In this document: in pieces, positions 8,946-22,729 of the stretch | Layout of the letters: the number at the start of each line of letters is the position of its first letter | Numbering within the stretch: the stretch's first letter is position 1 | Assembly: GCA_964023275.1 (NCBI GenBank) | Contig: OZ029919.1 | Coordinates: 5,991,950-6,055,949 of the forward strand | Direction: 5' to 3' | DNA length: 64,000 bases | Source: Norana najaformis | Taxonomy: Eukaryota > Annelida > Clitellata > Crassiclitellata > Hormogastridae | The notes under the pieces: model-generated | Databases searched by the model: none | Seen by the model: the letters and a program-made list of their open reading frames with translations, nothing else | What the model was told of the DNA's origin: nothing | Position numbers and translations under genes: made by a program

Positions 8946-11900
8946 TTAAGACGTATCAAGGCGAATCATTCGTAGTTTGAAGTTGTCTGCCAATATGCAA
9001 GCAGCATCATTCGATGCACCGCAGTAATGAGATGAGGAGAATACTGTCAGAAGATGACCTCCCTGCTGAACCTACAAGAAGCCGCAACACTTTCAAAACA
9101 AGCCACTTAGTTTTTGCTTAAACTGAATCTCGTAAAAGGTGGTTTTTGCTTAAAATGAATCTTGTAAGTCAGTGTAACCTAAAATAGTATGGATAATTGG
9201 CAATAATTAATCAATAAGATCAGGCAATCACCCATTTAATCAATCAGAAACTCCTTTTAAGGATTGGCTAAGAAGACATGATGTCCCACAACCCTGTAGC
9301 TCCTAAACATCTTTCCATCTGTTTTAATTTTTACTTTTCAGTAGCTTATAAAGGTTAAGGTGAAATACTTGTTTTGCAAGCTTCTGTAGAAACTGCTCAG
9401 CTGAGAAGCATGTGTTGAAGAGAAGGATCTTCACCTGGGGTCCAACACCACCATACCAACACCATGACAGGACACCTCTTCAACTCCCAAACTTGTACTG
9501 GTACTTCATTTACCATCCACATGGAAGGCTACTTCATTTACCATCCACACGGAAGGCTGAGTGTGTACTTTCGCAGTTGTACCAATGAATTTTTAAGAAT
9601 TTTAATTGCCTTGAGAGAAGCGAGTGTCAGTAACACATAGGCAAGTGAAAACTGTGAGATTTAACAAGGCTACCTTAAACCTTGCAACACACTTAAACAC
9701 ACTGGCAACTGAAAGGCTACCTTAAACCTTGCAACACACTTAAACACACTGGCAACTGAAAGGCTACCTTAAACCTTGCAACACACTTAAACACACTGGC
9801 AACTGAAAGGCTACCTTAAACCTTGCAACACACTTAAACACACTGGCAACTGAAAGGCTACCTTAAACCTTGCAACACACTTAAACACACTGGCAACTGA
9901 AAGGCTACCTTAAACCTTGCAACACACTTAAACACACTGGCAACTGAAAGGCTACCTTAAACCTTGCAACACACTTAAACACACTGGCAACTGAAAGGCT
10001 ACCTTAAACCTTGCAACACACTTAAACACACTGGCAACTGAAAGGCTACCTTAAACCTTGCAACACACTTAAACACACTGGCAACTGAAAGGCTACCTTA
10101 AACCTTGCAACACACTTAAACACACTGGCAACTGAAAGGCTACCTTAAACCTTGCAACACACTTAAACACACTGGCAACTGAAAGGCTACCTTAAACCTT
10201 GCAACACACTTAAACACACTGGCAACTGAAAGGCTACCTTAAACCTTGCAATACACTTAAACACACTGGCAACTGAAAGGCTACCTTAAACCTTGCAACA
10301 CACTTAAACACACTGGCAACTGAAAGGCTACCTTAAACCTTGCAACACACTTAAACACACTGGCAACTGAAAGGCTACCTTAAACCTTGCAACACACTTA
10401 AACACACTGGCAACTGAAAGGCTACCTTAAACCTTGCAACACACTTAAACACACTGGCAACTGAAAGGCTACCTTAAACCTTGCAACACACTTAAACACA
10501 CTGGCAACTGAAAGGCTACCTTAAACCTTGCAACACACTTAAACACACTGGCAACTGAAAGGCTACCTTAAACCTTGCAACACACTTAAACACACTGGCA
10601 ACTGAAAGGCTACCTTAAACCCGACATGCTGCACTTCATGTGCTCGAACGACATGACTAAGTTTGTTCCTTTTGAGGAATTCCATCAGAGCATTACAGCT
10701 GAAGAAGTTGGCTGTTCCTCTTCGGCTGTTAAAAATGAATCCGCCATTGCTCTCAAGGTCCTTTTTCATCTCTTCCGTTTGATTCTCGGAGCTGAAATGC
10801 ATAACAAAAGCCATTACTAACTGCATCTACTGCTGGCCCTTGAAACGTTCCACTATGCTGAACCACTCTATCTCACTAGTCTTACAACATTTGTTAACAT
10901 GCTGTATGTCCATTGACTGAGTGAGGAATTGTAGGAGGAATCACAGGCGTGGGTGGGTCACAGCGATCAGGCAATAAAAGTAAGACAATACAAATAGGTC
11001 TTAAAGTACTTTCCAAATGTGCAAATGTTCAACAAAATGTTCTGTTCCACTGGAGACAGTCCTGACACGGCTGCCGGTTGGTTCCTCGTGAAATGCACAG
11101 TGTGCTGATTGAAGCCTTCCCCGAGATGGTTACTATGTAGGGACCTTGAGCAAGTTTTTCACACACAATCTATTTCTTCAATGTCTGAGAACAATTTAAA
11201 ATTTCGACAAGTAACTCTAATAGAATTCTTTGTATCGTTCAGCGTAAAATCAAACCTCAGTGGATCACTCCACATCACATCCCACGCCAAGCCACTCTCT
11301 TTCTCTGGGTCCTTCAGCGGCACTGGAATGTCATTTATACAACCAATGTATCCGCCTCCATAGTCCGGAGATGGAATGCCTCCGTGAACACAGAACACCT
11401 GGAAGCAGTTACAAAACTAACAGCACAAACCATCCACAAATAAATACTACACATATAACAGAATAATCTAGACAAATTTACTGTGAGTGGTGATGTAATA
11501 AATGCACAGTTATTTTACTAACAGACATCCACAGTTTGGCTCACAGACTGGAATCAAAGAAGCCATTAGAACATTTTTAGTGTTGGCTTCAGATGCCTTT
11601 TGGTTCATAGGGGCCATTAACAAATTACACTAATTTTACTTTCCATGACAGCTGCTGTTGAATTTATTGTCTTGAAAACTGTTGAATTTACTGTCTTGAA
11701 AAGATCTTCGCAGTTCTGGTACCTTATCATCGACTGTAGCGGCAATCGGCATGCAGTCAAAACACTGGTTGACAGCTTCCCAGATCTGATCTCCCAGAAC
11801 TTCTCCAAACTTGTTGTAGCACTCCCTGACAGAACAGTCAAAACAGATGCCTAATATTTTTGACAGGTTCCTAAAAGATATCACATACCTAAATATCCAA

Positions 11901-20900: not shown

Positions 20901-22729
20901 AAGCATGCAATTTATCTAGGAACAAAAAGCTTGAGCATTGTAGAACAGAGAGTAGTAATTCATACTGTTAGCCTTTGCCTCTTCCACAAAGTCAATAACC
21001 TCCGTTCCCAACAAGCCATCTTCTTCAAACAACAGAGATTTCAGACTTTCCAAAGTAAACCACTTCCTTGTGGCAGTCTACGAAAACATTTCACACAATA
21101 CAGACATGATTCCTAACAAAAACAAAATAAATAAATATGCATATATGCATATATGAAAACTGAGTGAATGAATCAAAAATAAAGCAATGAATGAAATATT
21201 CAGTGAATAATGAAGTAACAAAATTCAGAATTTAAAGTTTAATTGAGAAAGTGACCAATGTAAAAAGGCAATACACAGCACCCTCACTGTAATACACGTT
21301 GATTTAATGTGAATTTGGGTGTAATACAATACAAGTATAATTTAATAATGCCCTCCTTACAAAGTTCAGAAGTGCGCACAGTCAAAAGTGTATAACACAT
21401 TCATGGCCATAGATCCCAAATACATCTATGCATCCATATGTGATCCGTGAAAGAAAACTCAAATATTGCCTAAATAGTAATGCCTGTCCTCACAGAAGTG
21501 CTGATCTTTCTTTTCTCATTGTTTGCCAAGCTGATAGTGGGTCAAACTCTCGCACAGCATACCAAAATAAATGCTATAAAGCATTGATGTCATATTTCTG
21601 TAAGACTGGTACGGAACTCTTGAATCAAAGTAAAGTACATCCCGTGTTCTAGCTTGGGTGTGGTGTATCAGCAAATTAAAAGATTGTAAAATGAAATTGC
21701 AATAGAAGAACAAGAATTAAGAAGAAGTAAAAAAATTAACCTCTGAAACTGAACCAACTTTGACAGGCTCCGCAAGAAATACGACATGACTGTATGATTT
21801 ATCTTCAAGAACACTGTCGTAGTGTGTTCTTATGACATTCTTCAGACTAATTTCATTTTCTGTAACCTAAATTCAGAGACATAAGAAAACCCAATCACTT
21901 AACACCTAATTTCAGACACAAAAGAAAACCCAATCAGTTAACTGTGAATCAAATGTTATAAAATGATCGAAAAAAAGGTGAACAAAAAGAACAACATATT
22001 TTTCACAAAGGAATACTCCTTGTTAAACATGAATAATTGCTTGAACCTTTATATTTCAAAGTTCTATCCAATTTAAGTTCAGTTTCCTGGGCCATGATTC
22101 AAGCCCTTTGTAAGCCCACAAAGTATGATCTGCTTTTTGCATGCTCACAAATATTCAAACTTCAGCAAAATGCTTTCCCTTGTTCAACTAGTTTATTATT
22201 GAATAAGTTTCATTTCAAATATGAGCTTCTATCATCATGCAAACAATTTGTTTACACTAATAATGATGACAAGGTCAGGCAAAGAATTAGAATACGGCAG
22301 AGATTTCTTACTTATAAATTTCTCACCAAATTTGAACAACTTCCTGCACTAGGGTAAAGTTAGGTAAGTAGGATCAAACCACCCACAGAACTGATGAAAA
22401 GTCTTATAAATGCAAAAATGTAAGTCAGGTTGTAACATATTTGCAGCAGAGCTAGTTTTAGTGCTCAATTACTTGGTCCTAAAGTCAAGATGTCTTGGCC
22501 AAAAACATGTAGTACCTAAGCCATATTTTATGCAATGAACTGAAATAATATTTCATCCACAATGACTTACCTCTTTGCCATATCTTTCAGCTGCAAGTGT
22601 AATTGGTTCACAGCTATCAACAATACCACCAGGCATCCACCATCCCCGATCTTTTACGAGAGTTAGCAAGTATCTAGAACAGCAGTCCTCACTCTCCTCT
22701 GGTATAAGTAAACTGACTTCGATCAACAT
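8946..22729 (-). CDS. Nudix-like / EF-hand / PPP Ser/Thr phosphatase fusion, 19 exons
   Basis: Exons in coding order: 22571-22729, 21741-21866, 20966-21077, 19865-19996, 19231-19357, 18436-18609, 17926-18009, 17536-17673, 16929-16968 (its 3' edge is uncertain), 16128-16203, 15747-15881, 15109-15200, 14147-14279, 13288-13418, 12488-12594, 11723-11825, 11256-11398, 10614-10791, 8946-9071. Lengths sum to 2316 nt (771 aa plus stop) with matching phases. Residues 1-132 look like a Nudix fold: GWWMPGG, then a degenerate box, then RKWFTLESL. Residues about 150-350 resemble a neuronal-calcium-sensor/calcineurin-B region; one canonical EF loop runs D264 to E275 ([12 protein letters not shown]), the other loops are degenerate. 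The PPP domain (about 466-771) has GDLHGN (510), GDYVDRG (542), RGNHE (573), HGG (628), RAHE (720) and SSSHYCG, so all metal and phosphate ligands appear present. The start ATG has an in-frame TAA 30 bases upstream, but an acceptor-like AG also lies just before it. Role is inferred: a Ca2+-regulated phosphatase. Known PPEF/rdgC phosphatases carry EF-hands C-terminally; here they are N-terminal. Confidence 0.85.
9668..10614. repeat. 47-bp minisatellite, 20 units, fused to an exon edge
   Basis: Exact 47-bp period from GGCTACCTTAAACC at 9668 to the same words at 10608, i.e. 20 periods, almost without variation (one C to T near 10251). It lies in the last intron of the phosphatase gene. On the coding strand each unit contains GGTTTAAG/GTAGCC, a copy of the exon 18 donor, and CTTTCAG, an acceptor-like site. 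The array ends exactly at the true donor (10614/10613). Confidence 0.95.
12315..12455 (-). mobile_element. tRNA-derived SINE (family I), antisense
   Basis: Reverse complement of a B-box-like GGGTTCGAG and A-box-like GCCGATTGGATAGAGTGCTC, in an intron of the phosphatase gene. Confidence 0.6.
12855..13004. repeat. (TA)75 microsatellite
   Basis: 150 bp of uninterrupted TA in the intron between exons 14 and 15 of the phosphatase gene; it is the source of several meaningless long open frames on both strands. Confidence 0.98.
15290..15498 (+). repeat. SINE family I remnant plus TA microsatellite
   Basis: SINE-like body at 15290-15447 (GTTCAAGCCTCTCTTAAGAC, GATTGATGCATAGGCATTAG), ending in a (TA)n tract at 15448-15498. 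Located in a phosphatase intron. Confidence 0.6.
16645..16677. repeat. perfect 13-bp hairpin
   Basis: CATCGCTGGCTAA and its exact reverse complement separated by a 7-base loop, in a phosphatase intron. Confidence 0.8.
19740..19805. repeat. AACATAAT tandem palindromic repeat
   Basis: About three copies of TTATTAACATAATAACAT, each self-complementary, in a phosphatase intron. Confidence 0.8.
20045..20210. repeat. tandem repeat, 3 copies
   Basis: Three copies containing AAATTATTAGGTCTCATGCA and TCTGACCAATCTAA, spaced about 55-60 bp, in a phosphatase intron. Confidence 0.85.
20235..20565 (-). mobile_element. tRNA-derived SINE (family H), full-length antisense
   Basis: Same element as 29722-30010: a tRNA-like head at its high-coordinate end (GGGTTCAAATCGCCACCAGG on the minus strand) and a body with TATGCCAAGG-type and GAAGTCGCTAAC-type words. 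Inserted in a phosphatase intron. Confidence 0.7.

What the first reader, a model, noticed from the sequence alone, without database searches (positions are those of the whole stretch)
8946..22729. Nudix + EF-hand + PPP phosphatase in one protein
Seen: 19 phase-consistent exons read into a Nudix-like N-terminus, a calcium-sensor-like EF region with one canonical loop (D264-E275), and a PPP domain with every signature (GDLHGN, GDYVDRG, RGNHE, HGG, RAHE). Known: animal EF-hand phosphatases (PPEF/rdgC) have C-terminal EF-hands and no Nudix domain; calcineurin keeps its EF subunit separate. Inference: a single-chain Ca2+-controlled phosphatase with a built-in nucleotide-sensing or pseudo-enzyme module, possibly an undescribed family.
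Basis: partly seen in the sequence, partly recalled or inferred. Interest (0 to 1): 0.88.

Follow-up and report, generated by a model that had tools for sequence, protein, structure and literature searches.

The report
Calcium-sensor phosphatase with decayed Nudix domain
An animal gene appears to encode one protein that joins a worn-out nucleotide-enzyme (Nudix) domain, a calcium sensor and an intact-looking protein phosphatase; calcium-sensor plus phosphatase proteins have been reported from single-celled relatives of animals, and the extra Nudix part is the unusual piece, though its attachment is not yet proven.

Summary
On the minus strand, 22729-8946, exon-like segments encode a Nudix-like region, a recoverin-like EF-hand region with one canonical loop (residues 264-275), and a PPP phosphatase with the catalytic signatures. 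The exon count is not fixed: I prefer 21 (829 aa). Phase consistency is weak evidence: exons 1-8 and the last ten fit, but the middle allows 31,523 open paths. One gene for EF and PPP is favoured by two linker ORFs that score higher as coding than all 157 ORFs of the other introns, and by no promoter-like CpG rise there; the linker splice sites are weak. The Nudix-EF join is less secure (weak donor, CpG bump at 19.2-19.9 kb). The Nudix match is remote, and its box (R-Y-G-K-E-V for REUXEE) has lost two glutamates, so it is probably inactive. The phosphatase resembles PP1, BSU1 and calcineurin; its place is unresolved. The closest known kind is the kelch-less Bsu1 with EF-hands reported in 2021 from choanoflagellates and others. 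I judge it a new variant of a known kind: an animal PPP with EF-hands in front, probably with a pseudo-Nudix module. RNA evidence is needed.

The parts
22571..22729 (-). exon 1: ATG start, Nudix-like strands and Nudix box ([21 protein letters not shown])
   Evidence: donor GAG|GTAAGT 10.4 bits
21741..21866 (-). exon 2: rest of Nudix box and central Nudix-like region
   Evidence: within the PHROG 1198 match
20966..21077 (-). exon 3: end of Nudix-like domain ([13 protein letters not shown]); donor weak
19865..19996 (-). exon 4: linker between Nudix and EF regions; open only in phase 1
   Evidence: 1 pseudo-exon as good on both sites in the introns, 0 antisense
19231..19357 (-). exon 5: degenerate EF-hand 1 region
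18436..18609 (-). exon 6: degenerate EF-hand 2 and canonical EF-hand 3 loop [12 protein letters not shown] (residues 264-275)
17926..18009 (-). exon 7: after EF-hand 3
17536..17673 (-). exon 8: degenerate EF-hand 4 and start of linker; donor weak (1.5 bits); in-frame stop just downstream if not spliced
17437..17470 (-). exon 9 (uncertain): 34-nt linker exon; an alternative end is 17432
   Evidence: acceptor 11.6 bits; coding score of the 17470-17432 form about zero
16904..16988 (-). exon 10 (uncertain): acidic linker; absent from the top-scoring path
   Evidence: its ORF 17006-16817 scores 15.8 bits against a maximum of 12.9 in 157 intron ORFs; weak acceptor (2.3 bits)
16288..16377 (-). exon 11 (limits uncertain): basic linker [11 protein letters not shown]
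   Evidence: its ORF 16414-16279 scores 16.2 bits, same control; weak sites (1.2 and 3.2 bits)
15747..15881 (-). exon 12: region before the phosphatase domain
15109..15200 (-). exon 13
14810..14890 (-). exon 14
14147..14279 (-). exon 15: start of PPP catalytic domain
13288..13418 (-). exon 16: GDLHGN, GDYVDRG
12488..12594 (-). exon 17: RGNHE
11723..11825 (-). exon 18: FGEVLG stretch shared in place with BSU1
11256..11398 (-). exon 19: VHGGI
10614..10791 (-). exon 20: RRG arginine and RAHE; its donor is followed by a 47-bp tandem array
8946..9071 (-). exon 21: FSSSHYCG loop, C-terminus and stop
22601..23222 (-). possible promoter region: CpG o/e 0.87 over the start of exon 1 and the DNA upstream, up to about where a dispersed repeat begins (near 23219)

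Best explanation
One minus-strand animal gene of about 21 exons encodes a Ser/Thr phosphatase of roughly 830 residues. Its C-terminal PPP domain keeps the catalytic signatures and is predicted active (sequence shown, activity inferred). A recoverin-like EF-hand module before it carries one canonical Ca2+ loop; Ca2+ binding there is inferred to shift that module and the charged linker against the catalytic domain and so switch or tune activity in cis, as the EF-hand subunit of calcineurin and the EF-hand domain of PPEF are thought to do. The N-terminal Nudix-like domain has lost two of the conserved glutamates of its box, so it most likely does not hydrolyse nucleotides and acts as a ligand-binding or docking module. 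By catalytic domain and the presence of EF-hands without kelch repeats it is nearest to the EF-hand-bearing Bsu1-type phosphatases.
For: Domain matches. The EF segment aligns with recoverin in one stretch (residues 6-146 of the 166 given) that crosses exons 5-8; the Nudix match (residues 28-113) crosses exons 1-3; PPP crosses exons 15-21. Two linker ORFs score above all 157 ORFs of the other introns. Exon 4 has 1 rival of equal splice quality in the introns, 0 antisense, and is open only in the phase that follows exon 3. CpG o/e is 0.87 at 22601-23222 and 0.35 in the EF-PPP gap; 0 of 651 overlapping gene-body windows reach 0.87. In the genome search with residues 1-351, 8 of 23 matches are the gene itself and the other 15 are 18-35% identical and start at residue 105 or later. 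FGEVLG fills the place of BSU1 MGESYG where PP1 and CnA have a gap. EF-hand Bsu1s are reported.
Against: No transcript. The middle joins are not unique (31,523 paths); the top-scoring path drops exon 10, and the linker splice sites are weak. Exon 8 could end in a stop, with AATAAA at 17442 (8 AATAAA in the 16 kb scanned). Exon 3's donor is weak (0.8 bits held out), a better one at 21000 has the wrong phase, and CpG o/e rises to 0.74 at 19201-19900; two gene-body windows reach 0.85 and 0.84, close to 0.87. The coding score is blunt: two accepted exons score below zero (-1.0 and -3.1) and 4 of 228 antisense ORFs exceed 15.8, the two highest of them over exons. The tree leaves the phosphatase unplaced, and its SSSHYC loop has a Pro-to-Ser change as described for PPEF. 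NUDIX Pfam is below cut-off and the genome scan missed it.
Confidence: 0.5

Rival explanations
1. Two genes: a small degenerate Nudix gene (exons 1-3, reading on to a stop at 20916) and, next to it, an EF-hand PPP gene that starts near 19.9-19.3 kb.
For: Weak exon 3 donor and a stronger donor in the wrong phase; CpG o/e 0.74 at 19201-19900; an in-frame Met lies near the start of exon 5; the reported EF-hand Bsu1s are described without mention of Nudix.
Against: Exon 4 looks like an internal exon open only in phase 1, which fits exon 3; the CpG rise at exon 1 is slightly higher than anywhere in the gene body; same strand and intron-sized gaps.
Confidence: 0.28
2. Two genes: a Nudix plus EF-hand protein ending in exon 8 (KRKILLAD and stop) and a separate PPP gene starting near 16 kb.
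For: In-frame TGA right after exon 8 and AATAAA at 17442; the exon 8 donor is the weakest of the 17 listed (1.5 bits; it was left out of the training set); weak splice sites in the linker.
Against: Two coding-like linker ORFs lie in the gap; CpG o/e there is 0.35, below the gene-body value 0.38; EF-PPP proteins of this kind are published.
Confidence: 0.14
3. A member of the PPEF/rdgC family with rearranged EF-hands.
For: EF-hands with PPP in one inferred chain; Pro-to-Ser change in the SAPNYC loop as described for PPEF.
Against: EF-hands are N-terminal and the stop follows the catalytic domain directly; the PDB matches shown (60 of 92) are calcineurin, PP1, BSU1 and a few without subtype name, none named PP5.
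Confidence: 0.12

Closest known systems
Kelch-less Bsu1-type phosphatases with EF-hands (PMC8249667, 2021)
   Same: PPP with EF-hand accessory domain and no kelch repeats; the window shares a short insertion with plant BSU1
   Different: Here in an animal, with a Nudix-like domain in front; the paper's main text does not use the word Nudix. Its sequences could not be fetched, so domain order and orthology are untested
PPEF / rdgC
   Same: EF-hands and PPP in one chain; Pro-to-Ser in the SAPNYC loop
   Different: PPEF EF-hands are C-terminal; here N-terminal; no Nudix in PPEF as described there
Calcineurin A/B
   Same: Ca2+ sensor plus PPP; CnA is among the best PDB matches
   Different: Calcineurin keeps its sensor in a separate subunit (recalled); here inferred one chain
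TRPM2 NUDT9-H pseudo-Nudix domain
   Same: A Nudix domain with a broken box in a Ca2+-linked protein; human box RILRQE is inactive (PMC6461439, passages)
   Different: Partner is a phosphatase, not a channel; box here R-Y-G-K-E-V; no evidence of ADP-ribose binding. Invertebrate TRPM2 boxes are canonical

Membership tests
PPP Ser/Thr phosphatase | GDxHG, GDxVDRG, GNHE, HGG, RAH signatures | tested here: met
   All present in order; Metallophos 9e-29
EF-hand calcium sensor | at least one canonical 12-residue loop within an EF-hand module | tested here: met
   [14 protein letters not shown]-hand_1 8.5e-6 at cut-off; recoverin 7e-6; the other three hands look degenerate by eye
Nudix fold | profile match to Nudix | tested here: inconclusive
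   PHROG 2e-4, NCBIfam 0.03, Pfam 0.038 below cut-off, genome scan missed it; no fold prediction run
Nudix hydrolase (active) | complete box REUXEE | tested here: not met
   reads R-Y-G-K-E-V: first and third glutamates lost (consensus REUXEE)
PPEF / rdgC | C-terminal EF-hands after the catalytic domain | tested here: not met
   stop follows the catalytic domain; EF region lies before it
PPEF / rdgC | IQ calmodulin-binding motif before the catalytic domain | not tested
   feature; no scan made
PPEF / rdgC | Pro-to-Ser change in the SAPNYC loop | tested here: met
   window reads SSSHYC; feature
Bsu1 (kelch type) | kelch repeats | tested here: not met
   no kelch match in the Pfam scan of the three segments given; the linker exons between exons 8 and 12 were not in that scan
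Bsu1 with EF-hands | PPP domain grouping with Bsu1 in a tree | tested here: inconclusive
   13-row tree, one BSU1 row, leaves the window unplaced; shared insertion only
Calcineurin | catalytic chain with separate EF-hand subunit | tested here: inconclusive
   EF region lies upstream of the PPP on the same strand and is inferred to be in one chain; no transcript

The most novel reading that the evidence does not exclude
A conserved animal family of single-chain phosphatases that read two signals at once, Ca2+ through the EF module and a nucleotide such as ADP-ribose through a catalytically dead Nudix domain, so that protein dephosphorylation is gated by nucleotide or redox state in the way TRPM2 gates a channel.
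Probability: 0.2. Interest if true: 0.8.

Novelty: new variant of a known kind. Interest (0 to 1): 0.5.

Why it matters
If the fusion is real, animals hold a further way of tying Ca2+ to Ser/Thr dephosphorylation beside calcineurin and PPEF, with a possible nucleotide input. It would extend the EF-hand Bsu1 group, reported in 2021 from protists and a fungus, into animals, and give a pseudo-Nudix module outside ion channels. Much of this can be tested with one recombinant protein.

Tried and rejected
Relatives in IMG/VR: none confirmed for the PPP part or the Nudix+EF part, with the patterns used. The GTDB scan gave 3 remote prokaryotic PPPs, one of them used as a tree row. Phase consistency as proof of one gene: rejected, since 31,523 open paths exist. 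A simpler 20-exon, 811-residue path that I first preferred: dropped on checking, because it scores 75.2 against 92.8 for the 21-exon, 829-residue path and 94.7 for the best; my confidence in the best explanation went from 0.52 to 0.50 and that in the exon-8 rival from 0.12 to 0.14 for this reason. Polyadenylation signals as proof of two genes: rejected, 8 AATAAA and 13 ATTAAA lie in the 16 kb scanned. Phylogenetic placement: tried, unresolved; of the PPP sequences seen, 13 rows were used, some of them partial; left out were further own-genome PP1, PP2A and PP2B copies and GTDB loci L025 and L026. CpG profile: useful, not decisive. GC skew is mostly negative over the gene but near zero at 17500-18999; I drew nothing from it. 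Species: a COX1 search gave 4 matches, all on contig 15 and with stops, so it was not pursued. PMC5608401, which holds nudix, EF-hand and metallophos, has them in unrelated passages.
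Full report
What is there. The window lies in a 608 Mb, 17-contig genome. Genes broken up by introns, PP1-like exons 92-98% identical to a PDB PP1 chain and neighbours with MCM, CTLH, MyTH4, RhoGAP and FAM210 domains point to an animal; the species was not identified. On the minus strand I rebuilt the gene from splice signals and reading frame. The start is at 22729 and the stop at 8946, as reported. The EF loop falls at residues 264-275, as reported, and the PPP signatures are present.

How firm the gene model is. Exons 1-8 keep phase, and so do the last ten. 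Between 17536 and 15881 the model is open: a search over splice sites found 31,523 stop-free, phase-matched paths within its limits, so phase alone says little. I prefer the path 17673-17536, 17470-17437, 16988-16904, 16377-16288, 15881-15747, which keeps both coding-like linker ORFs, ranks third (92.8) and gives 21 exons and 829 residues without an inner stop. The top path (94.7) drops 16988-16904 and uses 16203-16128. A 20-exon path gives 811 residues but scores only 75.2. Exon limits here are provisional and several linker sites are weak (acceptors 2.3 and 1.2 bits).

One gene or several, EF to PPP. In the gap, two sense-strand ORFs (17006-16817 and 16414-16279) score 15.8 and 16.2 bits on a codon model trained on the other exons; the best of 157 ORFs of 20 codons or more in the other introns scores 12.9. 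The score is blunt: two accepted exons fall below zero, and 4 of 228 antisense ORFs exceed 15.8, the two highest (24.1 and 20.2) lying over exons. CpG observed/expected in 15890-17530 is 0.35, against 0.38 for the gene body and 0.87 at 22601-23222. In a genome search with 22740-23560, the part below about 23219 matched only itself; that search scored 40 of 799 candidates. Against one gene, exon 8 would end after KRKILLAD if its weak donor (1.5 bits) were not used, with AATAAA at 17442; but AATAAA occurs 8 times in the 16 kb scanned. I put EF and PPP in one chain at a little under 0.8.

One gene or several, Nudix to EF. Only 1 other stop-free pseudo-exon of 60-250 bases in the introns, and 0 on the antisense strand, match exon 4 at both ends, and exon 4 is open only in phase 1, which exon 3 supplies. 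But exon 3's donor is weak (0.8 bits held out), a better one at 21000 is in the wrong phase, and CpG o/e rises to 0.74 at 19201-19900, between exons 4 and 5, where a second start is possible. I put this join at about 0.65.

The Nudix part. Pfam NUDIX gives 0.038, below its cut-off; NCBIfam YtkD 0.03; PHROG 1198 MutT/NUDIX 2e-4 over residues 28-113, across exons 1-3; the 3 PDB hits at E<=10 are a MutT/NUDIX protein (0.043) and two pyrophosphohydrolases, aligned through the box. A scan of the whole genome with PF00293 returned 17 matches at E<=10, none in the window. So the fold is likely, not proven. The box reads [20 protein letters not shown]. In NUDT9 the first and third glutamates of REUXEE stabilise the site and the first helps hold Mg2+; RILGEE and REFGKK mutants are inactive, and so is human TRPM2 with RILRQE (PMC6461439, passages). 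Here the first is Y and the third V, so hydrolysis is unlikely.

The EF part. The segment given aligns with recoverin in one run (E 7e-6; 197 PDB sequences at E<=1, 60 shown). Only the third loop, [12 protein letters not shown], is canonical by eye, and Pfam marks one EF-hand stretch (25.4 bits at a 25.4 cut-off). Ca2+ binding is inferred.

The phosphatase. The best PDB matches are calcineurin A, PP1 and plant BSU1. Identity is 36-41% to each of the 11 eukaryotic PPPs in the set. The 13-row tree gives it a long branch (1.87) and no supported partner. It shares with BSU1 a stretch, FGEVLG against MGESYG, where PP1 and CnA have a four-column gap and PP2A a three-column one in the rows printed; PP5 has no data there. 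Its SSSHYC loop carries the Pro-to-Ser change described for PPEF (PMC1885993, passages), which counts the other way. The EF-hands lie before the catalytic domain and the stop follows it, which fails the PPEF definition.

Known relatives. Section 8 of PMC8249667 (that section read in full; first author, Kerk, recalled) reports Bsu1s that lack kelch repeats and have EF-hands in Thecamonas, Monosiga, Salpingoeca, Basidiobolus and Nannochloropsis; the word Nudix does not occur in its main text. No paper joining Nudix, EF-hand and a PPP in one protein appeared in the listings, which cover open-licence papers only. No eukaryotic protein collection was on hand, so how widespread the architecture is remains unknown.

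How it most likely works. Shown: the sequence signatures. Inferred: Ca2+ loading of EF-hand 3 moves the sensor and the charged linker (acidic, then [11 protein letters not shown]) relative to the catalytic cleft and so sets activity; the dead Nudix domain binds a ligand or a partner and places or tunes the enzyme.

Verdict. A good observation with some over-reading: a plausible new variant, an animal EF-hand PPP with a pseudo-Nudix head, not a new category, until transcripts and orthologues settle the joins.

Noticed in passing
9666-10621: A 47-bp unit repeated 20.3 times (99% match) begins at the end of exon 20 (10791-10614); the units repeat that exon's splice donor (TTTAAG|GTAGCC), giving many like candidate donors in a row.
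   Followed up: partly
26491-29619: Minus-strand open frame of 1049 codons with MCM OB, P-loop and lid domains, without a stop over that stretch; MCM9-like by recall.
   Followed up: partly
33428-34215: Minus-strand ORFs with CTLH domain matches; GID8-like by recall.
   Followed up: no
49482-52702: Plus-strand ORFs with MyTH4 and RhoGAP matches, ARHGAP39-like by recall; GC skew changes sign near 36 kb between minus- and plus-strand genes.
   Followed up: no
56099-57810: Minus-strand ORFs with FAM210A/B-like domain matches.
   Followed up: no
23219-23535: Dispersed repeat just upstream of the gene; 45 of the 46 genome matches listed are partial copies at 65-90% identity (40 of 799 candidates scored).
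   Followed up: partly
G000 contig 15, 412069-412726 and 570464-571281: COX1-like stretches with stops under the standard code, possibly mitochondrial DNA inserted in the nuclear genome.
   Followed up: no
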